Shown piece after piece: positions 4,605 to 22,533 of a stretch of DNA of 46,861 nucleotides. The DNA is from a virus, in the IMG/VR virus record IMGVR_UViG_3300042328_001505, positions 1 through 46,861 of that record; one strand, 5' to 3'. The position numbers and the translations under genes are program-made. Every line of letters begins with the position of its first letter. The stretch's first letter is position 1. The notes below the pieces were generated by a model. The model made no database searches. It saw only the letters and a list, made by a program, of their open reading frames with translations, and was not told the DNA's origin.

Positions 4605-5020
4605 GCTGGTTTCTCCGGCCAGATAATTTCAAATGGGTATTTTTCTTGCAAGGTAATATCTCGAAGTGCTTGACGGTATGTTTGCCACTCGTTGTAGTTT
4701 TCTAATCTTGTAGATGCTGATACCGTGTCTGTCCAGTCACTCATTGATAGTAATTGCTGCCTCTTACTCAATACCTGGCGTTTAGCAGTCGCAGGGTCAT
4801 CTTCCCATTGTTTTGTTTGCCAGTTGAATTCGCTGTAATCGTTGAGTTTTGGTGGTATATCTCGGATTTCTGCGGTTTCAACGTCTATATATTGAGTCGC
4901 ATCATTAGCTTCCCCAAAGAGTATAAACTCTCCTTCTTGTTTTTGAAGAATGAGATATTCTTCTGGTGCATCTACTTGGCGCAATATTTGGCCATTTTGA
5001 TTGTAATAAATTGCTTGCAT
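4601..5020 (-). CDS. Tail-fibre assembly protein (Caudo_TAP/DUF4376-like)
   Basis: A 139-residue protein. The C-terminal half has the layout typical of phage tail-fibre assembly chaperones: a repeated Lys/Arg/Gln helix, then MSDWTDTVSA, NEWQTYRQALRDIT, and a closing YPFEIIWPEKP. The N-terminal half is a small beta domain. Such proteins usually lie directly 3' of the fibre gene they help fold; here the ATG overlaps the stop of the 1,204-residue fibre gene (TAATG), with AAGAAG before it. Function is inferred from family pattern and position. Confidence 0.8.
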   Translation of the reverse strand: MQAIYYNQNGQILRQVDAPEEYLILQKQEGEFILFGEANDATQYIDVETAEIRDIPPKLNDYSEFNWQTKQWEDDPATAKRQVLSKRQQLLSMSDWTDTVSASTRLENYNEWQTYRQALRDITLQEKYPFEIIWPEKPA

Positions 5021-8000
5021 TATCTTCTTGCTCCAAGGCAGCTTATATACCTATTATCTGCATTACCATTATAATCTCCATTCGTTAAAACTGATAATGT
5101 AAGTGTTTTAGAGGTGTTAGCTGGCAGCGTATAATTTATATTTGCATTTCCTTGCAGCCCCCCAGCAAAGCTATAACCATTAAGCCACCAAGCCTCATAT
5201 AAAACAATGTCTCCACTTAACAATCTAACAATAAACGGCCCATAATCTACGGTGTAACATAAACCAAAAGGTATAATTAAAGATGTAGTTTCTGTAGTGC
5301 TCAACACTGGTATGGTAAGTGTCTGCACTGTTGTCCAAATTCCTTTAACCAGACCAATCGATGATATTGTATAAGCGTTCATTGGCACAGTAACTGCATT
5401 ACCCGCAATCTTCAATGTTTCTACACTAGCATCAACAATATCGGCAGTTACTACTTTAAGTTTATTAACAGAAGCTCTATCTATTTGTGCATTACCGATA
5501 GCAGCATCTCCTATCTTGGCTTGTGTGATGGCTGCATTCTCTATCTGCGCAGAATTAATAGCAGCATTAGCAATATAAGTGATTACATTAGTGGAATTGA
5601 TTTGATTTAAGTTTGCAAAAGCACCTGCTGGAGCTCCTGGTACATAGGCACTTGCTGTGGTCTGACTTGGAGCAGCTTCGCCGAAATAAGGTTGTGTTAT
5701 CCACATCCAACTGTCAGCTTGACCAGCTTGGGTATTACCTTTTCTGAAATAGGGTTGTACATAAGCTGCGGTTGGGTCTGATATAAAGAAGATTGAGTAT
5801 TGTGTATAATTACTTAAGTCCGTACCACCCGTAGCTGGTACATACCAAGAACTATAAGGTAGTGACCAATTACTTATATTATCCCCGTTTGAATTATATA
5901 CAGCTACATACATTTCGATGCCGATACATCTGTGTGCAGCAATCCTGGCTGAAAATTCATATTTGGTATTAGGCTTAACTGCTATGCGTTGGTCATTAGT
6001 GCCCCAAGTACCACCATTATAAATATCAATTGCTATATCGTTTGAACCTATACCATCTTGTTCTATAGCAAGAGCATTGCCGCCTTTCGGTCTCCAATAC
6101 GCATCAACCCCCCAAATAGTAGTAGAATCATTGAAATTGACTATATTTGCACCTCCCGGATTCCAACCTTGAAACCAACCTGTAATGCCTTTGAAATCAG
6201 TATTGACTAATCTATTAACACCTAACCCAGGTAAATTTGTTATCTCAGAGGAATAATCAACATTAGATTTTGTGGCCAATGATCCTTGGTTTCTAATACT
6301 AGCAGCATCAATCAAAGCATCAGCGTAATCTTGAGTTACAAGTTGCGGTGTAGAAGTAACAATATCAATCACCCAACCTGTTTCCCATACGCTTCGTGCA
6401 AAGTTTGAATACCCAGCAATAAAGTCTTTAACCATTACTTTTGGATAACTCCAAGAGCTGGTAGGTTCACCGATATAAATACAACATTTACCCAGTGTGG
6501 AATCATAGCCAAAGCGGACGCGATTATCTGCTGCAGTTGAACCTATTAAATTGGCTTCTGTGTTGTACCAAGTACCATTATCTTGATAGTTATAGCCTGC
6601 TAAATTTAAACTAAATGATTTATCAGAACTATAGGTATAGACATTCACCGTGAATTTCATCATAGTATCAGTGAAACCTTGCGGCAATATAATTCTGATC
6701 ATGCCCGTGACAGCACCTTGATTTGAATTATAACTAGCCCCGATAGGACGAGCAACAAACAAAGTACTATTTTCTTCAATAACATTTGAAACTCTTGTGT
6801 CATTGTAGTTAGTTACATCCGCATAATCAGCAGGTCTTTTACCATCATTATTTTGTACATCAGACCATTTTTGCTGTGCATTTAGTAACGCAGAATAACC
6901 AAGATTGTCAAACAATTTACTTTCTGTGCCATCCACAACTTCAACAACAGGATAACCAAATACTTGTGTTTCTCCTGCAGTTCCACAGTAAAACTGATAA
7001 GCACGAGTGCCTGTGTATTCAACATCACTTGCCCAACAATAATTCCATCTTTCAGCGATCAGTTCACCTGTGGTCAAATCGAATATACCTGAACCAGCAT
7101 TGGTGTTCCCCGTACTTCCAGCCGGAAACACATAACCAACCAACAAATACCAACGATTTGCCACGAGACCAACGCGTTGCCCATAAACAAAATAAGGATT
7201 ACTATCTTTATTACTTGTGTTTAAAGCACAAACTGTATCTCCACCAATACCCCAATAATATGAACCAGTAGTGCCACTTGTTATTTTGACGGGAACCGCA
7301 AATCTATATGATTTATTTTTATCGACTTTAAACCAATTTTTACCGGCATTTGCATCAGCATTCCAGCCACCGTCAGCAGCATTGTCACCGTTAGATGTAC
7401 ATTTCCAGACAGGAACACGAGTGCCTGTTTGATTTGTGTCATACTCTATGGAATTTTCTGTAGCAGCTCCAATAAAAAGCCAAGGAGGAGTTTGACCAAC
7501 AATCCAAGTATCTGTTTGAAGGTTATTGAACATCAAATCATTACTGGGTTGTCCTGAGATGTTAGTGCCCCAAGTGGCACCGACAGTTGCACCAGCCGCC
7601 GCAGATGATTTTTCTAATCTAACTATTGTATAATCATCCGTGTAGGTTTGACTATTATAAGTTACCGTAACAGTGACTTTTGCTGATTTTGAAGTTCCAA
7701 AATGTGTAGCAGATATCGTTTGTGATGATGTGCCACTATTAGAAGGTGCAGTTTGAAATCCAGAAAATGTCCAAGAATAAATTGGGCTAGTCATATTGAT
7801 AATATTTGCTGTGAAAATAATATCAGCCTGTCCAGCATCTATTGTGCCATCGGTTGCAGTAAATGAAACTTCACGGTTAGATGTGATAGAAACAGTAGAG
7901 CCTAATCCAGATTGGCCATCCGTGCCTGCTTTAGATTTACTAAATGTTTGTGATTTGACAATTGTAAAGGCAGTATTACTAGCAGATTTGCCAGTTATGG

Positions 8001-8634
8001 TATATGTAATACTAGAGGTATCAATATTATTAGCCACGCCTGAATGATCACCTACTGTTAAATAAGTACCAGAATCAGTTAAAGATCCTCTTGTTATATT
8101 AGTAGCAGTGGATGTAACAGTCCATGTTCCAGCAGAGGTGCCAACCCCGTCATATGATAATTGGGTTGCGCCTTCGTACACATAAACATTAGTACCAGAC
8201 CCAGTGTACGAACCTACTACTCCGGTAGAGGTTGCTGGAAATGTAAATGATTCGTTTGATAATATCGCTGAAATCCCATTAGTGCCATTCGTTCCATTAG
8301 TGCCATTAACAACAAACAATACCGGTGTCCCCCATGTTCCACCAGTACTAGATGTATTGGGTGGTATTATACTAAATGTATAAGTTGCAGCCCATGTTGG
8401 CGTAGTGGTAGATGTTGGAATTGACGCTGACCAGATTGTAGCACCGGTGGATGGGTTAGTTGCTGGATTTGGATCAGTTGGTACGGTTAACACTTGTGTG
8501 CTAAAATTATAAGAACCCCCTGATGGTGTGTCTGGTTGACCAACTTGTTGAGCATAAACTGTGGCAGTATAAAAACTGCCACCATCATTGACATCAACTA
8601 TTGTAATTTCGCCACTTGAAACTTTTGTTGCCAT
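5020..8634 (-). CDS. Large tail-fibre/tail-tip protein with carbohydrate-binding-like modules
   Basis: A 1,204-residue protein. Its N-terminus (SSGEITIVDVNDG) is nearly the same as in the neighbouring 490-residue protein, suggesting a shared virion attachment domain. Then come a NGTNGTNG hinge (about 110-120), an Ig-like module (YDGVGTSAGTW ... FSKSKAGTDG) also found in the 1,036-residue protein, two jelly-roll-like Trp/Tyr-rich modules (about 350-600 and 790-980), a short repeat series (AAITQAKIGDAAIGNAQ, about 1040-1090) and a compact C-terminal head. The repeat series resembles the trimeric rod of lambda J-like and central fibre proteins. It probably binds host surface sugars. AAGGATA precedes the ATG; the assembly chaperone follows directly. 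Confidence 0.75.
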   Translation of the reverse strand: MATKVSSGEITIVDVNDGGSFYTATVYAQQVGQPDTPSGGSYNFSTQVLTVPTDPNPATNPSTGATIWSASIPTSTTTPTWAATYTFSIIPPNTSSTGGTWGTPVLFVVNGTNGTNGTNGISAILSNESFTFPATSTGVVGSYTGSGTNVYVYEGATQLSYDGVGTSAGTWTVTSTATNITRGSLTDSGTYLTVGDHSGVANNIDTSSITYTITGKSASNTAFTIVKSQTFSKSKAGTDGQSGLGSTVSITSNREVSFTATDGTIDAGQADIIFTANIINMTSPIYSWTFSGFQTAPSNSGTSSQTISATHFGTSKSAKVTVTVTYNSQTYTDDYTIVRLEKSSAAAGATVGATWGTNISGQPSNDLMFNNLQTDTWIVGQTPPWLFIGAATENSIEYDTNQTGTRVPVWKCTSNGDNAADGGWNADANAGKNWFKVDKNKSYRFAVPVKITSGTTGSYYWGIGGDTVCALNTSNKDSNPYFVYGQRVGLVANRWYLLVGYVFPAGSTGNTNAGSGIFDLTTGELIAERWNYCWASDVEYTGTRAYQFYCGTAGETQVFGYPVVEVVDGTESKLFDNLGYSALLNAQQKWSDVQNNDGKRPADYADVTNYNDTRVSNVIEENSTLFVARPIGASYNSNQGAVTGMIRIILPQGFTDTMMKFTVNVYTYSSDKSFSLNLAGYNYQDNGTWYNTEANLIGSTAADNRVRFGYDSTLGKCCIYIGEPTSSWSYPKVMVKDFIAGYSNFARSVWETGWVIDIVTSTPQLVTQDYADALIDAASIRNQGSLATKSNVDYSSEITNLPGLGVNRLVNTDFKGITGWFQGWNPGGANIVNFNDSTTIWGVDAYWRPKGGNALAIEQDGIGSNDIAIDIYNGGTWGTNDQRIAVKPNTKYEFSARIAAHRCIGIEMYVAVYNSNGDNISNWSLPYSSWYVPATGGTDLSNYTQYSIFFISDPTAAYVQPYFRKGNTQAGQADSWMWITQPYFGEAAPSQTTASAYVPGAPAGAFANLNQINSTNVITYIANAAINSAQIENAAITQAKIGDAAIGNAQIDRASVNKLKVVTADIVDASVETLKIAGNAVTVPMNAYTISSIGLVKGIWTTVQTLTIPVLSTTETTSLIIPFGLCYTVDYGPFIVRLLSGDIVLYEAWWLNGYSFAGGLQGNANINYTLPANTSKTLTLSVLTNGDYNGNADNRYISCLGARR

Positions 8635-14947: not shown

Positions 14948-16060
14948 TCAAATGTTTGGTAGTTCATCATAATTTAATTCGCTGCTCATCACACCAATTA
15001 CATAACTAATCGATTCGCTTTCTTGTAAAGCGGTTTGTTTTTTACTAGGATCAGTATGACGTGTAAACCATGGTATTGGAGTGGTTTTTGGTGCAGTTCC
15101 TTGGTACTTAATACCAATTTCTTTTAATGAACCAACTGCTGTGTAATCGACAAAATCTTTTAAGATATTGGCATTTAACCCGATCACTGGTCCTTTCATA
15201 AACAAGTAATCTGCCCAAGATTTTTCTTCTCTGATCACTGATTCGTAGATACCATATACTTCACGTTCTAACCGTACTTTAGCTGCTGCAAATCTTGGAT
15301 CATCTTTAACTAATTGATTAATAATATAAGCAGTCCAGTCTTTGTGTAATAATTCATCTTGTAAAATTAATGAAATTATATTACCATTTCCGATGAATAG
15401 TTTATTCTCTACCATGGCTAAACTAGTAGCAAATGATACCATAAATCGGAAAGCTTCTAATGCATAACTAGCATGTAAAGCCAACCAAATGTGATCTATA
15501 TGTGCTTCTTCGTTGTAGAGGAAGTTAACAGTATCTTTTACTTCTGCTAGGCAGTTATATTTGTGAAGTTTGTCATAATATTTACCAACACTAGATGCCA
15601 TGTCGATAATTTCTTTTGTGTCATGAATGGTATTGAATACTTCTTTTGGCACATTGTAAATATTTCTAATAATATGGCTATAACTGCGGCTATGAATGTT
15701 TGTTTCAAAAAACCCCCAATTATACATTAATGCTTCGACTTCTGGAACCGAGCATACTGGTGTGAACACTTGGGTTGGCCCACGTCCCTGTAAACTGTCT
15801 AATGCAGTTTGTCTTAATACATTGCTAGTGAAAATATGTTTAACAGCATCACTTGCATCTTTGAAATCATTGGCATCTTTACTCAATGAAATTTCTTCTG
15901 GTACCCAAAAGAAACCACGAGCAGTTTGTTCAAATTTTTGAATTTTGGGATATCGGACTTCTTCAAACCGTTGAATAGTTACTGGCCCTGCTGGGTCAAG
16001 GAACATTTTACGATTTAAATAATCTGTTTGTGTTTTTAAGTTATATTGTTGTTCTGACAT
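14948..16060 (-). CDS. nrdB: Class Ia ribonucleotide reductase, beta subunit (NrdB)
   Basis: A 370-residue protein carrying the diiron-tyrosyl radical site needed to reduce ribonucleotides together with NrdA. Visible ligands are Asp88 (ALDSLQ), Glu119 and His123 (FETNIHSRSY), radical Tyr127, Glu202 (LEAFRF), and Glu236/His239 (QDELLHK). The first helix pair reads Glu-x3-His, one residue longer than the Glu-x2-His of E. coli. Length is normal for the family. AAGGACAAGGA precedes the ATG. It lies downstream of the split nrdA, separated from it by two small genes. Confidence 0.96.
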   Translation of the reverse strand: MSEQQYNLKTQTDYLNRKMFLDPAGPVTIQRFEEVRYPKIQKFEQTARGFFWVPEEISLSKDANDFKDASDAVKHIFTSNVLRQTALDSLQGRGPTQVFTPVCSVPEVEALMYNWGFFETNIHSRSYSHIIRNIYNVPKEVFNTIHDTKEIIDMASSVGKYYDKLHKYNCLAEVKDTVNFLYNEEAHIDHIWLALHASYALEAFRFMVSFATSLAMVENKLFIGNGNIISLILQDELLHKDWTAYIINQLVKDDPRFAAAKVRLEREVYGIYESVIREEKSWADYLFMKGPVIGLNANILKDFVDYTAVGSLKEIGIKYQGTAPKTTPIPWFTRHTDPSKKQTALQESESISYVIGVMSSELNYDELPNI

Positions 16061-16489: not shown

Positions 16490-17449
16490 TTATAATTTGC
16501 AAGATTCGCAATCTGCTTCACCTTCATCAATACCGCTTGGTAAATCAACTTCATCTTCTGCTTTTGAACCAGCTTTATCTATAAGTGAGTAATAAAAGGT
16601 TTTTAGTCCCCATTTATGTCCTAACATCAAATTTTTCGCAATTAATGTTCCTGGTACTTTTCTATCTGGAAAGTGTTTAGGCGAATAAAAAGTATTCACT
16701 GAGATTGCTTGATCGACATATGCTGCTAAAACAGATGCAGTTTTTAAGTAACCTATGCAATCAGTCTGGTCCCATAGTAACTGATATTTATTTTTCAGTT
16801 TATGGTATTCTGGAACTACTTGCGTTAATGATGCAGCTTTTGATTCTTTGGTTTGAATTAACTGCATTGGCATTTCAATTCCATTTGTGCTATTGATAAC
16901 AACAGAACTGGATTCAACTGGTGCGATAGCCATTTGTGTGGCATTTCTAACTCCATATTGTTTCATACTAGCTCGTAAGGTTTCCCAGTCTAATTCTGGT
17001 GTGAAATCAGTTAACTCATTAACACCCTCTGCACGTAATTCCCATGGGAATATACCTTGGCCGTATCTCGTTAAATGACTATGCTCACACGCACCGCGTT
17101 CTTTTGCTAATTCAACACTGGATTCGGTGGTATAATATGCTAGATGTTCAATCCAACTTTTTACTTCTGATAGCATATCTGGATCACCGTATTTGAATCC
17201 ACGTTTAGCAGCCCAGTATGCAAGATTTGTAATACCAATTCCTAGCGGTCTAATTTCATCATTAGATAATTTAGATTGGATTGATAAGAAGTCTTGGTAA
17301 TCCAAAATATTGTTAAGACTGCGGTGTAGAATACGACACGCCCTACGCATATCTTCTGGGTTTCTGAAAGCCCCCCAGTTGATACTTCCAAGTGTGCATA
17401 AACTGATTTTTGGCACAGCACGGGTGCATTCTTTTTTAATTATTTTCAT
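16490..17449 (-). CDS. nrdA: Ribonucleotide reductase alpha subunit, C-terminal piece (split NrdA)
   Basis: A 319-residue protein. From residue 15 it aligns with the C-terminal part of class Ia NrdA: ISLCTLGSIN holds the active-site Cys equivalent to E. coli Cys462 (here Cys18), followed by ILDYQDF, GIGITNLAYW, ATNGIEMP-type loop, and a C-terminal CESC pair (314, 317) that shuttles electrons. The first 14 residues (MKIIKKECTRAVPK) are not NrdA; they resemble the start of split-intein C-halves (KIIKRES type). It has its own ribosome site (AAGGAA seven bases upstream) ten bases after the endonuclease stop, so it is made as a separate chain that must join the N-terminal piece. Confidence 0.93.
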   Translation of the reverse strand: MKIIKKECTRAVPKISLCTLGSINWGAFRNPEDMRRACRILHRSLNNILDYQDFLSIQSKLSNDEIRPLGIGITNLAYWAAKRGFKYGDPDMLSEVKSWIEHLAYYTTESSVELAKERGACEHSHLTRYGQGIFPWELRAEGVNELTDFTPELDWETLRASMKQYGVRNATQMAIAPVESSSVVINSTNGIEMPMQLIQTKESKAASLTQVVPEYHKLKNKYQLLWDQTDCIGYLKTASVLAAYVDQAISVNTFYSPKHFPDRKVPGTLIAKNLMLGHKWGLKTFYYSLIDKAGSKAEDEVDLPSGIDEGEADCESCKL

Positions 17450-17459
17450 TAATTATTCC

Positions 17460-18236
17460 TTAATTATTCCTTAATAATTTTCCGTATTTTATTAAAATAT
17501 ATCTACTCTTTCCAGTACTAATAGATGCATCGACTAGTGAATTATAAATAATGCCATCAAATTCTATTTTTGGCAACGCTTTCAATCTCTTTGCAGTTTT
17601 AACAGATTCACTATTAATTTTATTTTTTTCTTCTGATGTCAGGTATCGATATGTGGCATATTCGTAAGGTACATTTCTAATATTTGTAAGTTTTTTACAT
17701 TTATAGCCATGGTGATGACCACGCTTTCCTCTAGCAACAGCACTCATAGTTGATGGATTTAATGAATGTGTTTTACAAAAATCTAACATATTCCTTACTA
17801 TAAGTGTGTCCCCGTCTGGTGTTATAATCTCCCAGGTATCTATTGATAAATTGGCTTTTTGGTTGCAGGTTAGGGTGCATCCTTTGTTCCAAGCTTTGCG
17901 AGTTCCAGTTTCAAATGCAATTTTATGTGCTTTGCTAATTTTATGACCAGACCCAGTATCCCCACCACCCGCTGATGGTGAAATGTTATAGTAAGTTTTA
18001 CTATTAGCACAATCACGGGCGGTTAGATAAAATTGTTCTCGAATAAACAATTGTTCTTCGGATTGTACATATTCAACTATAACCCGGGTGAATATATCTA
18101 TTCCATATTTTCTAACCGCATTTAAAAATCTATAACCACTGCCGGTATATCCATCGTCTATAGTTCCTTTATGTGACCCTAAATATTTCATACCATTTAC
18201 ATTATTAGTCCATTCGTAAATAAACCCAATATACAT
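17460..18236 (-). CDS. GIY-YIG homing endonuclease inserted in nrdA
   Basis: A 258-residue protein. N-terminal GIY-YIG nuclease: GFIY (residues 4-7) and KYLG (17-20), a conserved Arg region (about 36-42) and the catalytic Glu in REQFYL (Glu67). The C-terminal part holds DNA-binding repeats of homing endonucleases: TWEIITPDGDTLIVRNMLDFC with a SAVARGKRGHHHGYKC tail (about 134-181), and a NUMOD1/IENR1-like KIEFDGIIYNSLVDAS (about 223-238). It has AGGAG before its ATG and a late-type promoter upstream. It lies exactly between the two halves of nrdA, with only about 50 bases before it and 10 after, leaving little room for a group I intron. Confidence 0.92.
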   Translation of the reverse strand: MYIGFIYEWTNNVNGMKYLGSHKGTIDDGYTGSGYRFLNAVRKYGIDIFTRVIVEYVQSEEQLFIREQFYLTARDCANSKTYYNISPSAGGGDTGSGHKISKAHKIAFETGTRKAWNKGCTLTCNQKANLSIDTWEIITPDGDTLIVRNMLDFCKTHSLNPSTMSAVARGKRGHHHGYKCKKLTNIRNVPYEYATYRYLTSEEKNKINSESVKTAKRLKALPKIEFDGIIYNSLVDASISTGKSRYILIKYGKLLRNN

Positions 18237-18258
18237 TATACATTCTCCTTTTATAATG

Positions 18259-18266
18259 TATTTATG
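18259..18266 (-). promoter_or_regulatory. T4-like late promoter (CATAAATA) before the homing endonuclease
   Basis: CATAAATAC on the minus strand, about 22 bases before the endonuclease start and after the nrdA N-piece stop. It would give the endonuclease and C-piece late expression apart from the upstream piece. Confidence 0.45.
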
Positions 18267-18287
18267 TACATTAGGTTATGTTAACTA

Positions 18288-18419
18288 TTACATTAGTAAA
18301 TCTTTAATATCATCATCTTCGGTTAGTTCTCTAACTTTTTTCTTATCACCGTTAGCTAACAGAACTTTATGCTGTCCTGGTAATACCACATCAACGCCAT
18401 TATCCAATGTTAATTTAAA
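18288..18419 (-). other. Intein N-half (Hint) remnant fused to the NrdA N-piece
   Basis: Residues 467-509 read LTLDNGVDVVLPGQHKVLL, then ANGDKKKVRELTEDDDI. This matches intein block B and the strand after it (G-x-x-h-x-x-T-P-x-H-x-h, then KxxDLxxxDxI), with the block-B His kept but Thr changed to Leu. Block A with the splicing Cys1 is absent, so self-splicing is not expected. Confidence 0.6.
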
Positions 18420-19817
18420 CTCACCTTCATCGTTTAATGACTTAAATGGAACTGAAGGCAACACTATCTCTGCACATAAATTTGATTGATAGATTGGGTG
18501 AATGTTAGTATCAAATGGTCCTTGATTTTGGACATTATCAACATACATTAGGTAAATACGCCCGGTATCAGTGCGTTCTTTAAGTAATCCACCTTTGAAT
18601 ACTTCTTCTGCTGAAATAACTTTTTTTCTTAAATCTTTGCGTTTTTCGTATTTTACGTATAATTCTTCAAATTGTGCATTATTTCTATAGAATGCTTCGT
18701 ACAATTCTGGAACTTCATTTGGATCAAAGAATGTGATATTTTCTTTAGCTTTGAATCGTCTCCAAAATAGCGCCGATAATACAACCCCATAGTCCATATG
18801 TCTAACACGGGTTTCTTCTGTGCCTTGGTTATTTTTTAATACAATCAAATCATCAAATTGATAGTGCCAGATTGGGAAATATACTGTACAAGACGCATTT
18901 CTGATACCACCTTGGCTACAGCTTTTCAGATCACCAAACCATTTTTTTAAGAATGGAATCATGCCGGTATGCATGATTTCTCCACCTCTGATAGGCGAAC
19001 CTAACGGACGTAATCTACCAACTTCTAATCCGATGCCAGCACGTTTGCTAGCATATTTGGCCATCATTTCTCCAGAGGCGAATATACTATCAAGATCGTC
19101 GTCGCTGCGTATAAGAACGCAACTGCTAAATTGTTTTGTGGGGGTTCCGAGGCCAGCGAGAACAGGAGTAGCCAAAGTAAAAAGGCCATCAGATGCGGCA
19201 TTGTAATATTCCTTTATGTATTTCATTCTAGCAGAATTTGGTTCTTCTTTATGGAAGACAGTAGCTGCCGCAACCATGTATCGTATTTGAGGTGTTTCAA
19301 ATACTTCTTTTGTTGAACGATTTCTGATCAGATATTTTTCAATCAACTGCTCAATTGCAGCATATGAATATTGCTCATCTTTGTCATGATCAATAAACGA
19401 GTCCATTTTATTCCAATCATCTTCACTGTACCATGATAATAATTCAGGTGTATAAAGACCAATTGCTATATTGTTTTGCACAATTGAATAGAGGCTCGGT
19501 GGGTTGTATTGTCCGTATACATCTTTGCGAAGCATAGATAACCGTTGTTTACCGGCTACAAATTGATAGTTAGTGTGACCAATATCAGGATTAGCTTCAA
19601 CATCAATAAGATCAACGATTGCACGTAATGTTATTTCATCGATTTCTTTGGTTGTGATACCATCATAATAGTGTGGCTGACTCTTGATTTCAATCATTGA
19701 TTGACTGACATCTGCTATTCCCGCGCATACTTTAGCGATTTGGGACTGCCATTTTTCAATGGTCAATGGCTCTCTTTGGCCATTTCTTTTTATTACTGTA
19801 ATTTTGTTCATATCCAT
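18288..19817 (-). CDS. nrdA: Ribonucleotide reductase alpha subunit, N-terminal piece (split NrdA)
   Basis: A 509-residue protein. Residues 5-95 form an ATP-cone (ITVIKRNGQREPLTIEKW), so dATP feedback is plausible. The barrel follows, with the redox Cys233 (FSSCVLIRS, E. coli Cys225 equivalent), SPIRGGE, KSCSQGG, and the radical loop SNLCAEI (Asn446, Cys448, Glu450). NrdA similarity stops after NDEGE at residue 466, where intact homologues continue into ...CTL. The last 43 residues are a Hint/intein-like fragment. The rest of the enzyme is encoded at 16490-17449. The start at 19817 has only a weak GAGAG upstream; 19811 is an alternative. Confidence 0.94.
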   Translation of the reverse strand: MDMNKITVIKRNGQREPLTIEKWQSQIAKVCAGIADVSQSMIEIKSQPHYYDGITTKEIDEITLRAIVDLIDVEANPDIGHTNYQFVAGKQRLSMLRKDVYGQYNPPSLYSIVQNNIAIGLYTPELLSWYSEDDWNKMDSFIDHDKDEQYSYAAIEQLIEKYLIRNRSTKEVFETPQIRYMVAAATVFHKEEPNSARMKYIKEYYNAASDGLFTLATPVLAGLGTPTKQFSSCVLIRSDDDLDSIFASGEMMAKYASKRAGIGLEVGRLRPLGSPIRGGEIMHTGMIPFLKKWFGDLKSCSQGGIRNASCTVYFPIWHYQFDDLIVLKNNQGTEETRVRHMDYGVVLSALFWRRFKAKENITFFDPNEVPELYEAFYRNNAQFEELYVKYEKRKDLRKKVISAEEVFKGGLLKERTDTGRIYLMYVDNVQNQGPFDTNIHPIYQSNLCAEIVLPSVPFKSLNDEGEFKLTLDNGVDVVLPGQHKVLLANGDKKKVRELTEDDDIKDLLM

Positions 19818-19989: not shown

Positions 19990-22533
19990 TTACTGAATCG
20001 ATGATTTATACGTAAACGAGAAGATACCAATATCGTCTAGTAGACTGTTTGTATAATAGATACCGATGGCGGATTGACCACCTGAAAATGCTGCTGTAAA
20101 ATCAAGCCAACCAAGAAAATCCTCATTTCCTACGTAATCATATTCATCTGACGAATGGATTTGTGAATTGGCTATATCAGCAATTACTGTGATAATGCCT
20201 TTTCTTGTAAACTCTCCTACTGTACTGGAGTATACATATTCTATTTCGTGAATAATTGATCGTTGTTGAACACCCTCGATTGACACGGATGATGGTAGAT
20301 TAAACAATTTTCTACTAGTCAATGTATATATCAATGGTAGAGCTATAGTTTCATCTACCTCGTACAGACCCTTGCCACTAAATTCAGGTACATAAGTTGA
20401 TCTGATTGGTAATGAATAATAATCCCAGCGGTCAGATTTGATATTTCTAATTATATTGCCAAAATTATCAGAATAAATTTGAGGAATAAGGACCCCATCA
20501 TTATCACCAACATTCGCTAGGATGATATTATCGATTATGTTTTTTACACCAGTCTTAATCCAAATTGCTTGTTTTATAATATTAGAAAATTTTAAATTGC
20601 TAATTAATGTATTTCTAGCGCCATATTCTTTTCCTACAATTGATGGATTGAAAAATTCACCAAAGACCATGCCATAAGTACCAGATGAAATAGTACCATC
20701 AACAAATTTATTATTATCGATATCGTAATCGGAGTAAACACCATAACCAAAATTATTAATAATTATATTTTTGAATAAGTTATTAGTAGTGGTAACACTC
20801 TCACTTACAGCCGCCATTGAAATACCATAATTGGTGGTTCTTGTGCCAGAACTCCATGTACTAGACAATGCGATATTTTCAAATATACTATCTTTTACTG
20901 CATCTAATTGTAACCCATCTGACACATTATCTAACACGCTAATAGATAAATTTTTGAATATAATATTTTTCGGTTGATTTAATGATGTGGTATTCTCAAT
21001 AGAATTAGGTGATCCAGGACGTGATAATTCATTTACAAATTTAACAACAGCGGTGTCTTGAACCATTGTTAAAACAAATTCGCCATTAGTTACATCATCT
21101 GTAGCAACGTTATTTAATATTAAACTTTCAGAATCAATGACGTCTACGACAATAGTGCCGGGTGAGATTGATGGCCCTGATACTATTGCACCAATCATAT
21201 ATTCTGCTGCACTAATAGTAGATATTGTAAAACTATTATAGTTTGCATTTCCTGTAATGTGTCTATCTCTGTTAAATTTTAAAATGGTTTTATCAATACC
21301 AGCACCTACTATTGTTGCATAACTGGGAACATATAATGTATTGGAGATATTATATGTTCCAGGTGGTATTTCAAGGATAGATCTAAATTCTGGATTAGCT
21401 GATGCCAAACTCCCGGCTGCTGGTAATATGATATCAAAAATTTGCGGATCGGTTTCTGTGCTAGAAGATGGATTATCCATTGTAATACTAATACCTGGTA
21501 TTACTGATAAAATAACGGTATCAACTGGAATTCCTGGGCCACCTATTTCTGCTCCAACATACGAATAACTAGCACTAGCAGTATTGATTGTATAACTTCC
21601 TGGCGCTGATACAGCATTGATTGTAATAACGGGTGGAACATTCAGAAATAATTGATTAATAGCATTTTGTAAGCTAACAGTGTCGTCAACTATGCCATTC
21701 CCATATGTGCCAAAATCGGCAGTATTCACTCTATCATCCAAGCGAGACTGTATGGTTCGTAAAGCAGTATACTTGACCGGCACTGATGGACCAGTTACCG
21801 ATATTGCCCGTAACAAAAAGTCAACACTTCTAGTGTTCAAATTTACTGTTTGATCAGATATAATGTTGGAATTATTTGAAATAGTTACAGAAGAACTCCC
21901 GATTTCAGTTACCACTGAATTATTCAGGATACCGGTGCCATATATCTCCATTCCAACCACAAATTTATCTATATTTTGTGTGATATTTGTTATTATATTT
22001 GATCCTGGATGAACAGTTCCTGTAAATGTAAAACCTGTTCTGATATTATCCAATCCTAATGCGTTAGTTGGTACCGTAAATTGTGATCCATACGATATCC
22101 CATAACCAATCGATGTAATGTTTACAGTTACGACCGCGCCATTAAATACCGTGATAGTTGCGGTTGGTAATGATATTGGCCGATCACCATATGTAACCCA
22201 CTCTAATTCAACATTATTGTAAGTACCATCTGTATAATCAGTGCCAGGTGCTACGATTTCGACTCTTTGTATTGATCCACTTGCTTTATAGATATAATCT
22301 AAATTGCCAAGTAAATTAGCTGATTCGCCTTTTAAATTTGGTACATCAAGTTCAGTTAACAATCGAGTGTTGCCAACATGTGGTGCACCTTCGGCAACAG
22401 AGCCATTGCCAATATATAATTCTTGGGAATCAATCGCCCACCCTAATTCACCACTTGCTAATTGTGGTAATCCAGTGCCACTGAATTTTCTTCCGCGACG
22501 CTGTTGTATTCTTGAAATGGAAACTATTGCCAT
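19990..22533 (-). CDS. Tailspike with parallel beta-helix (pectate-lyase-like)
   Basis: An 847-residue protein. The N-terminal head (residues 5-50, ISRIQQRRGRKFSG ... GELGWAIDSQELYIGNGS) is the same fold type as the start of the 1,036-residue fibre and attaches the spike to the virion. The central region has the pectate-lyase-3 entry signature TADFGTYGNGIVDDTVSLQNAINQ (about 273-296, written as two parts: TADFGTYGNGIVDD then TVSLQNAINQ) and EIPPGTYNIS, then Asn/Ile/Phe-rich rungs to about residue 690. Such spikes bind or cut capsule or O-antigen. I cannot pick out catalytic acids with confidence. It stands alone between the nrd block and the exonuclease, with AGAGGA and a late promoter upstream. 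Confidence 0.82.
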   Translation of the reverse strand: MAIVSISRIQQRRGRKFSGTGLPQLASGELGWAIDSQELYIGNGSVAEGAPHVGNTRLLTELDVPNLKGESANLLGNLDYIYKASGSIQRVEIVAPGTDYTDGTYNNVELEWVTYGDRPISLPTATITVFNGAVVTVNITSIGYGISYGSQFTVPTNALGLDNIRTGFTFTGTVHPGSNIITNITQNIDKFVVGMEIYGTGILNNSVVTEIGSSSVTISNNSNIISDQTVNLNTRSVDFLLRAISVTGPSVPVKYTALRTIQSRLDDRVNTADFGTYGNGIVDDTVSLQNAINQLFLNVPPVITINAVSAPGSYTINTASASYSYVGAEIGGPGIPVDTVILSVIPGISITMDNPSSSTETDPQIFDIILPAAGSLASANPEFRSILEIPPGTYNISNTLYVPSYATIVGAGIDKTILKFNRDRHITGNANYNSFTISTISAAEYMIGAIVSGPSISPGTIVVDVIDSESLILNNVATDDVTNGEFVLTMVQDTAVVKFVNELSRPGSPNSIENTTSLNQPKNIIFKNLSISVLDNVSDGLQLDAVKDSIFENIALSSTWSSGTRTTNYGISMAAVSESVTTTNNLFKNIIINNFGYGVYSDYDIDNNKFVDGTISSGTYGMVFGEFFNPSIVGKEYGARNTLISNLKFSNIIKQAIWIKTGVKNIIDNIILANVGDNDGVLIPQIYSDNFGNIIRNIKSDRWDYYSLPIRSTYVPEFSGKGLYEVDETIALPLIYTLTSRKLFNLPSSVSIEGVQQRSIIHEIEYVYSSTVGEFTRKGIITVIADIANSQIHSSDEYDYVGNEDFLGWLDFTAAFSGGQSAIGIYYTNSLLDDIGIFSFTYKSSIQ

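What the first reader, a model, noticed from the sequence alone, without database searches (positions are those of the whole stretch)
16490..19817. NrdA in two pieces around a GIY-YIG endonuclease, with decayed split-intein ends
Seen: the N-piece stops matching NrdA after NDEGE and ends in 43 residues that read like intein block B and its following strand. The C-piece starts with MKIIKKE, like split-intein C-halves, then resumes NrdA exactly at ISLCTL. Each piece has its own start; the C-piece has its own ribosome site. Known: 'fractured genes' with split inteins and an endonuclease between the halves, and phage Aeh1 nrdA split by mobE yet functional as separate chains. Inference: a split-intein locus that lost block A (Cys1) and the C-terminal His-Asn, now working by non-covalent assembly. 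The break falls between the radical-site Cys448 and the redox Cys18 of the C-piece, in the active site itself.
Basis: partly seen in the sequence, partly recalled or inferred. Interest (0 to 1): 0.88.

Follow-up and report, generated by a model that had tools for sequence, protein, structure and literature searches.

The report
Split reductase joined by dead inteins
In a family of uncultured viruses of bacteria, a mobile DNA-cutting gene breaks an essential DNA-building enzyme into two proteins, and the broken ends carry leftovers of a self-splicing protein that can no longer splice but are kept by selection, most likely as clips that hold the two halves together.

Summary
NrdA is encoded in two pieces around a GIY-YIG endonuclease. 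The N-piece ends in a 43-residue tail, and the C-piece starts with a 14-residue head. Neither is NrdA sequence. A model of active phage split inteins recognises the tail (22.1 bits; best of 20,000 shuffles 9.6), and heads resemble the start of active C-halves. The catalytic ends (Cys1 block; terminal His-Asn) are gone, so splicing is not possible by known chemistry. This is not a one-off: 41 viral-contig loci (17 distinct tails) share the tail. The tail is under purifying selection like NrdA itself, while the DNA between the pieces changes: four GIY-YIG types, one reversed HNH, or nothing. Split and intact alleles differ mainly near the break, and split alleles are not one clade, as expected of a homing element. 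The same arrangement occurs in a second gene, the UvsW helicase, in Dickeya phages (with endonuclease) and 58 Vibrio phages (without). Best explanation: a splicing-dead split intein reduced to a docking module, so the two chains assemble non-covalently, as in phage Aeh1, which is broken at the same site by an endonuclease with a related DNA-binding part. The docking step is inferred, not shown. New variant of a known kind.

The parts
18288..19817 (-). NrdA N-piece, 509 aa; residues 1-466 are NrdA (Cys233 and Cys448 = E. coli R1 Cys225 and Cys439), residues 467-509 are the tail
   Evidence: PF02867 1-221, PF00317, ATP-cone; phrog_84 E 9e-164; alignment to E. coli R1; positions
18291..18419 (-). 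C-terminal tail (43 aa), splicing-dead split-intein N-half remnant: block-B region kept, block A missing
   Evidence: 22.1 bits with HMM of active split inteins vs 9.6 best of 20,000 shuffles; 17 distinct conserved versions; pN/pS about 0.2
18222..18281 (-). Hairpin (-19.6 kcal/mol, z -6.8) that takes in the endonuclease's AAAGGAG and start codon; contains CATAAATA (18259-18266), one base off the T4 late promoter TATAAATA
   Evidence: fold; strong in L109 and L139, weaker in L129, absent in L138
17460..18236 (-). GIY-YIG homing endonuclease, 258 aa, type A; C-terminal, presumably DNA-binding, part related to Aeh1 MobE
   Evidence: PF19835 SegE_GIY-YIG just under cut-off, phrog_314 E 8.7e-29; BLASTP to Aeh1 MobE 39% over 137 aa, E 2e-21
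17457..17461 (-). Ribosome-binding site AAGGA of the C-piece, 7 bases before its ATG
   Evidence: sequence
17408..17449 (-). N-terminal head of the C-piece (MKIIKKECTRAVPK), remnant of a split-intein C-half start; terminal His-Asn region missing
   Evidence: same register as active C-halves MKLIKKTEIKKPETVYNLH...NC; head of L138 8.3 bits vs 7.8 best of 20,000 shuffles; window head alone not significant
16490..17449 (-). NrdA C-piece, 319 aa; Cys18 = R1 Cys462; keeps the tyrosine pair and the C-terminal CxxC
   Evidence: PF02867 223-522; alignment to E. coli R1 from residue 458
14948..16060 (-). NrdB, small subunit, intact, downstream
   Evidence: PF00268 E 4.3e-41

Best explanation
The locus descends from an NrdA gene interrupted by a split intein with an endonuclease gene between its halves. 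Deletions removed the catalytic ends of the intein (Cys1 block on the N side; His-Asn end on the C side) and kept its middle, the strands flanking the split point where the two halves of a split intein recognise each other. Splicing is lost, but the kept strands still pair, so the two NrdA chains are docked non-covalently and build one active site together with NrdB. The cassette (tail, endonuclease, head) still moves between phages by homing, and the endonuclease can be swapped or lost while the docking module stays. Shown by computation: intein ancestry of the tail, loss of catalytic parts, purifying selection, endonuclease turnover, absence of monophyly, a second gene. Inferred: that tail and head bind each other and that the two-chain enzyme is active.
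For: HMM of 27 active phage split inteins scores all 17 tails at 17-25 bits, 20,000 shuffles reach 9.6. Heads match C-half starts, L138 above all 20,000 shuffles. PF14890 detects the tail in five relatives, E 1.6e-4 to 3e-3. Tail pN/pS 0.20 at near-saturated synonymous change (pS 0.78), like NrdA bodies 0.16 and 0.22; type-A endonuclease 0.39. Tail and head persist without endonuclease in L134/L136, with an ATGA stop/start overlap. Five insert types at one site. Split alleles are not one clade, p-AU 0.006. Split/intact differentiation peaks in the 25 codons before the break (0.092) and the 75 after (about 0.035), and is about 0.01 elsewhere. Same arrangement in UvsW. Aeh1 is broken at the same site by an endonuclease with a related C-terminal part; its two-chain enzyme is active (PMC3267527).
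Against: No direct evidence of binding or activity. AlphaFold of a read-through pseudo-complex failed (mean pLDDT 45), so contact of tail and head could not be modelled. The tail-only model is beta-rich (pLDDT 70) and its best fold match is the Npu DnaE intein, but not significantly (E 1.7). The head is short; its homology rests on a few members, register and position, and head pN/pS is higher (0.46). Recombination within nrdA can mimic loss of monophyly. No tail-bearing NrdA was found in the cultured-phage collection.
Confidence: 0.8

Rival explanations
1. A working split intein that trans-splices the two pieces into one NrdA chain.
For: Tail and head are related to active split inteins, and apparently active split inteins occur elsewhere in the same gene in relatives.
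Against: No Cys/Ser at an intein N-terminus with block A, and no terminal His-Asn before a Cys/Ser/Thr, in any of 17 tails and 13 heads.
Confidence: 0.03
2. Tail and head are neutral leftovers; the two NrdA pieces assemble through the NrdA fold alone.
For: NrdA halves share a large interface; other RNRs are split into two chains (NrdJa/NrdJb, PMC3267527). Head conservation is only moderate.
Against: Tail protein sequence is kept while synonymous sites are near saturation; tail and head persist without the endonuclease (L136) and in a second gene. Aeh1 tails are essential (Crona et al. 2011, from own knowledge; the paper is not held).
Confidence: 0.12
3. A group I intron is spliced out of the mRNA and restores one NrdA.
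For: Phage RNR genes often carry group I introns with endonucleases, and one cognate case (LIMEstone uvsW) was annotated as an intron (PMC3296691).
Against: No Rfam match to any intron in the window, also at relaxed threshold over 17300-18600; the tail is selected as protein; L136 has the same tail and head with no insert to splice.
Confidence: 0.02
4. nrdA is a broken pseudogene, or the split is an assembly error.
For: Interrupted essential genes in metagenome contigs can be artefacts.
Against: 41 loci from many samples, purifying selection on both pieces (pN/pS 0.16 and 0.22), all catalytic residues kept.
Confidence: 0.02

Closest known systems
Aeromonas phage Aeh1 NrdA-a / MobE / NrdA-b (genes-in-pieces RNR)
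   Same: Same break before ISLCTL (PF02867 1-221 / 222-522), endonuclease between, non-NrdA tail and head, and the C-terminal part of MobE is 39% identical to that of the window's endonuclease.
   Different: Aeh1 tails are not recognisable as intein-derived; MobE is HNH, here GIY-YIG; Aeh1 is a proven two-chain enzyme, this one is not tested.
Fractured genes with split inteins (Dassa et al. 2009, from own knowledge); compared here with UvsW of Salmonella phage S16 and Proteus phage PM2
   Same: Gene half + intein N-half, endonuclease, intein C-half + gene half; sequence homology of the kept parts.
   Different: Those keep Cys1 and HN-Cys; here both catalytic ends are missing.
UvsW of Dickeya LIMEstone-like phages and of Vibrio phage D506-like phages
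   Same: Same architecture: tail without block A (TEEDDVDDNW / TEDDDVCDKW), head MKPTK..., with endonuclease (LIMEstone) or none with ATGA overlap (Vibrio).
   Different: Another gene; tails are further diverged (LIMEstone 9.2 bits, Vibrio 0.6 bits with the intein model; LIMEstone-Vibrio tblastn E 9e-5). Published as an intron in LIMEstone.
Split gene 43 of Aeromonas phages 44RR and 25
   Same: Essential gene in two pieces, with or without endonuclease.
   Different: No intein-like tail recognised.

Membership tests
Functional split intein | Block A with Cys/Ser at position 1 directly after the N-extein | tested here: not met
   NDEGE runs straight into FKLTLDNG, corresponding to position 52 onwards of the active N-half model; absent in all 17 tails
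Functional split intein | Block-B region with conserved His | tested here: met
   His invariant in 17 of 17 tails; the Thr of TxxH is replaced by Pro (Ala in L148)
Functional split intein | C-half ending in His-Asn (or a variant ending in Asn) before Cys/Ser/Thr | tested here: not met
   Head goes from MKIIKKECTRAVPK straight into NrdA ISLCTL
Functional split intein | Sequence homology to split-intein halves | tested here: met
   Tail 22.1 bits vs 9.6 best shuffle; head family-wise, L138 above all shuffles
Aeh1-type genes-in-pieces RNR | nrdA split by an inserted homing endonuclease (here even at the same site), each piece with its own start | tested here: met
Aeh1-type genes-in-pieces RNR | Non-NrdA tails at both broken ends | tested here: met
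   not detectably homologous to the Aeh1 tails
Aeh1-type genes-in-pieces RNR | Two chains co-purify with NrdB and are active; tails needed for assembly | not testable with these tools
   needs biochemistry
Group I intron | Conserved intron RNA fold around the break | tested here: not met
   no Rfam intron match, gathering or relaxed
Homing element | Patchy distribution with co-conversion around the insertion site | tested here: met
   split alleles not one clade, p-AU 0.006; differentiation peak at -25 to +75 codons
Homing element | Endonuclease cuts the intact allele at the insertion site | not testable with these tools
   needs a cleavage assay

The most novel reading that the evidence does not exclude
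A further way for a mobile endonuclease to be tolerated inside an essential gene, besides self-splicing introns and inteins: a self-docking cassette. The endonuclease is framed by catalytically dead split-intein halves that turn the interrupted protein into a two-subunit enzyme. The cassette moves between phages, occurs in at least two genes (NrdA, UvsW), swaps endonucleases, and is finally domesticated when the endonuclease is lost.
Probability: 0.45. Interest if true: 0.85.

Novelty: new variant of a known kind. Interest (0 to 1): 0.74.

Why it matters
It gives a natural path from protein splicing to permanent subunit assembly: remove the catalytic ends of a split intein and keep the part by which its halves find each other. 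That would explain how essential phage genes survive being cut by homing endonucleases, and how one-chain enzymes become two-chain enzymes. It also offers compact natural protein-pairing tags, in 17 natural NrdA versions plus the UvsW ones, ready to test. Phage genes now annotated as introns or as two helicases (LIMEstone and Vibrio uvsW) may need re-reading.

Tried and rejected
Single-sequence and small-profile searches of the tail against PDB sequences gave only noise, plus one weak intein hit (Npu DnaB, E 1.3); Pfam on the bare tail gave Intein_splicing at E 0.1 only. Sensitivity came from a model of active phage split inteins and from relatives.

AlphaFold: tail alone gave a low-confidence beta structure; the Foldseek top hit was the Npu DnaE split intein, but E 1.7. 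A read-through pseudo-complex of both pieces (L133, stops read as residues) did not fold NrdA and is not used as evidence. An earlier alignment for it (A2) was discarded because MAFFT placed C-piece rows on the tail.

Aeh1 tails and 44RR gp43 tails were tested as further intein remnants and not supported. A pattern search for an intact intein at exactly this site in class I NrdA found none; it found a LAGLIDADG-type intein at the equivalent CTLGSIN site of another RNR gene, probably class II.

phrog_13169 'DNA polymerase', a weak hit of the tail, also matches the split-intein N-halves of S16 and PM2 UvsW at its C-terminal end, so that hit fits intein ancestry; its members were not retrieved.
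Full report
What is there. On the minus strand the window holds an NrdA N-piece (18288-19817), a GIY-YIG endonuclease (17460-18236), an NrdA C-piece (16490-17449) and, two small ORFs later, an intact NrdB (14948-16060). The two pieces together cover the barrel domain without loss: PF02867 1-221 and 223-522. Aligned to E. coli R1, the break falls at residues 458/459, between the radical-site Cys439 (N-piece Cys448) and the redox Cys462 (C-piece Cys18); the other redox cysteines and the tyrosine pair are kept. What does not belong to NrdA is a 43-residue tail on the N-piece and a 14-residue head on the C-piece.

How common it is. A search of viral contigs with the tail gave 42 loci; 41 carry the complete tail (17 distinct sequences) and 40 the head (13 distinct). 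Intact relatives read DDxxGRIALCTLG with nothing in between. The DNA between the pieces is not constant: type A GIY-YIG of 258-262 aa (window, L129, L138, L139), type B GIY-YIG of 232-238 aa (L116, L130), type C HNH-like ORF of 363 aa on the opposite strand (L120, L123, L131), type D of 235 aa (L133, L137, L140, L128), type E of 258 aa (L148), and nothing at all in L134/L136, where stop and start overlap as ATGA. Types B to E were assigned by reading their sequences (GIY-YIG or HNH motifs), not by a profile search. The tail and head therefore do not belong to any one endonuclease.

What the tail and head are. A hidden Markov model was built from 27 active-looking phage split-intein N-halves (mostly in UvsW of viral contigs, plus Salmonella phage S16, Proteus phage PM2 and two from Campylobacter phage WX1). 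It scores the window's tail at 22.1 bits and all 17 tails at 17-25 bits; the best of 20,000 shuffled tails scores 9.6. The match begins at model position 52, the strand before block B, and runs to the end of the N-half. PF14890 independently finds the tail in five related contigs at E 1.6e-4 to 3e-3, profile positions 51-95. Active C-halves start MKLIKKTEIKKPETVYNLH and end HNYIVEGAVVSNC; heads read MKLIKKEMVREPGK (L138) or MKIIKKECTRAVPK (window) and then go straight into NrdA. The head of L138 beats all 20,000 shuffles; the window's own head, taken alone, does not, so its homology rests on the family. Block A with Cys1, and the terminal His-Asn, are absent in every case. Splicing by the known mechanism is therefore excluded; the block-B His is retained in all 17.

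What keeps it. Across 11 loci the tail has pN/pS 0.20 with synonymous sites near saturation (pS 0.78), like the NrdA N-body (0.16) and C-body (0.22); within type-A loci the endonuclease stands at 0.39. The head is less clear (0.46, only 13 codons). Selection therefore acts on the protein sequence of the tail. The module also survives where there is no endonuclease (L134, L136).

It moves. On a tree of the C-body, split alleles are scattered among intact ones; one clade is rejected (p-AU 0.006; 0.003 without the long branch L120). Along nrdA, split and intact alleles are almost undifferentiated (about 0.01) except in the 25 codons before the break (0.092) and the 75 after it (about 0.035). The windows from -25 to 0 and from +25 to +75 exceed every one of 4,000 label permutations. 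This is what homing with co-conversion leaves. Recombination inside nrdA is a caveat, but it too implies exchange between split and intact alleles.

A second gene. The tail search also led to UvsW. In Dickeya LIMEstone-like phages the N-piece ends in IITLEFGNISIMVGDNEKVLLSNGETKVAMFVTEEDDVDDNW..., the C-piece starts MKPTKINKAED, and an endonuclease lies between; this was published as intron I-LimI (PMC3296691). In 58 Vibrio phages the same gene carries a related tail (E 9e-5); in the one read in full (D506) the gene is split with head MKPTKVVHKQG, no endonuclease and an ATGA overlap. Intact UvsW proteins stop matching at residues 401-409 of the Vibrio N-piece, just where the tail begins. The LIMEstone tail scores 9.2 bits with the intein model, at the upper edge of the shuffles; the Vibrio tail is not recognised on its own.

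Relation to Aeh1. Aeh1 NrdA is broken at the same residue. Its HNH endonuclease MobE and the window's GIY-YIG endonuclease share their C-terminal, presumably DNA-binding, half (39% over 137 aa, E 2e-21): the same aiming part with different cutters, which would explain the same site. The Aeh1 enzyme is an active (alpha-a + alpha-b)2 beta2 complex (PMC3267527). From own knowledge, its tails are required for assembly (Crona et al. 2011; not held). Its tails are not detectably intein-like. Like Aeh1 mobE and T4 intron endonucleases (PMC2988022), the window's endonuclease has a strong hairpin over its ribosome site and a late-promoter-like CATAAATA.

Model. A split intein with an endonuclease between its halves sat in nrdA near the CTLG site, a place where an intein is found in another RNR gene. 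Deletions removed both catalytic ends and left the strands around the split point, where the halves of a split intein meet. These strands now serve as a non-covalent clip: acidic tail end (TEDDDIKDLL), basic head (MKIIKK). Intein ancestry, loss of catalysis, selection and exchange between alleles are supported by computation; binding and activity are inferred.

Context. Relatives of this NrdA carry further, apparently active inteins in the same gene. In the contigs of L124 and L125 NrdA is spread over four ORFs: two split inteins with endonuclease-like ORFs, a cis mini-intein after the radical-site Cys, and the dead module. The stretch of NrdA between the two split inteins is SQGGIRNA, eight residues.

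Verdict. It is a new variant of the genes-in-pieces arrangement known from Aeh1.

Noticed in passing
L124, L125 with L196, L197 (contigs IMGVR_UViG_3300031813_000181 and 3300003375_000081): NrdA spread over four ORFs: short IntN (CVTPDTWVEVLDEDNSTDK) / IntC; second split intein (CVHIDSYVDK... / MKFLSNRVKIDEV...LLAHN); cis mini-intein after the radical-site Cys; dead docking module. Only SQGGIRNA (8 aa) of NrdA lies between the two split inteins.
   Followed up: partly
L123, L137, L140: Atypical split intein in NrdA with a very short N-half (about 18 aa), an endonuclease-like ORF of about 365 aa, and a long C-half ending LTHN|SQGG.
   Followed up: partly
L082 1804-4398; L154 1807-3569: UvsW helicase split with the same kind of splicing-dead intein ends in Dickeya LIMEstone-like phages (with endonuclease) and in Vibrio phages of the D506 group (without).
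   Followed up: yes
window 18222-18281: Strong hairpin (z -6.8) over the endonuclease ribosome site, with CATAAATA, close to a T4 late promoter; L129 has an exact TATAAATA.
   Followed up: partly
window 17460-18236; L105 1448-2161: The GIY-YIG endonuclease here and the HNH endonuclease MobE of Aeh1 share a C-terminal half: same presumed DNA-binding part, different nuclease.
   Followed up: yes
L120, L123, L131: The insert between the NrdA pieces is an HNH-like ORF of 363 aa on the opposite strand to nrdA.
   Followed up: no
L152, L153: RNR gene (probably class II) with a LAGLIDADG-type intein exactly before CTLGSIN, the equivalent of the break site here.
   Followed up: no
L002 5505-6359; L005 8664-9416: A further endonuclease-like ORF lies between the NrdA C-piece and NrdB.
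   Followed up: no
window 5020-8634 and 19990-22533: Long ORFs (1204 and 847 aa) without a PHROG match at E 1e-5; several other long ORFs of the window match tail and virion proteins.
   Followed up: no
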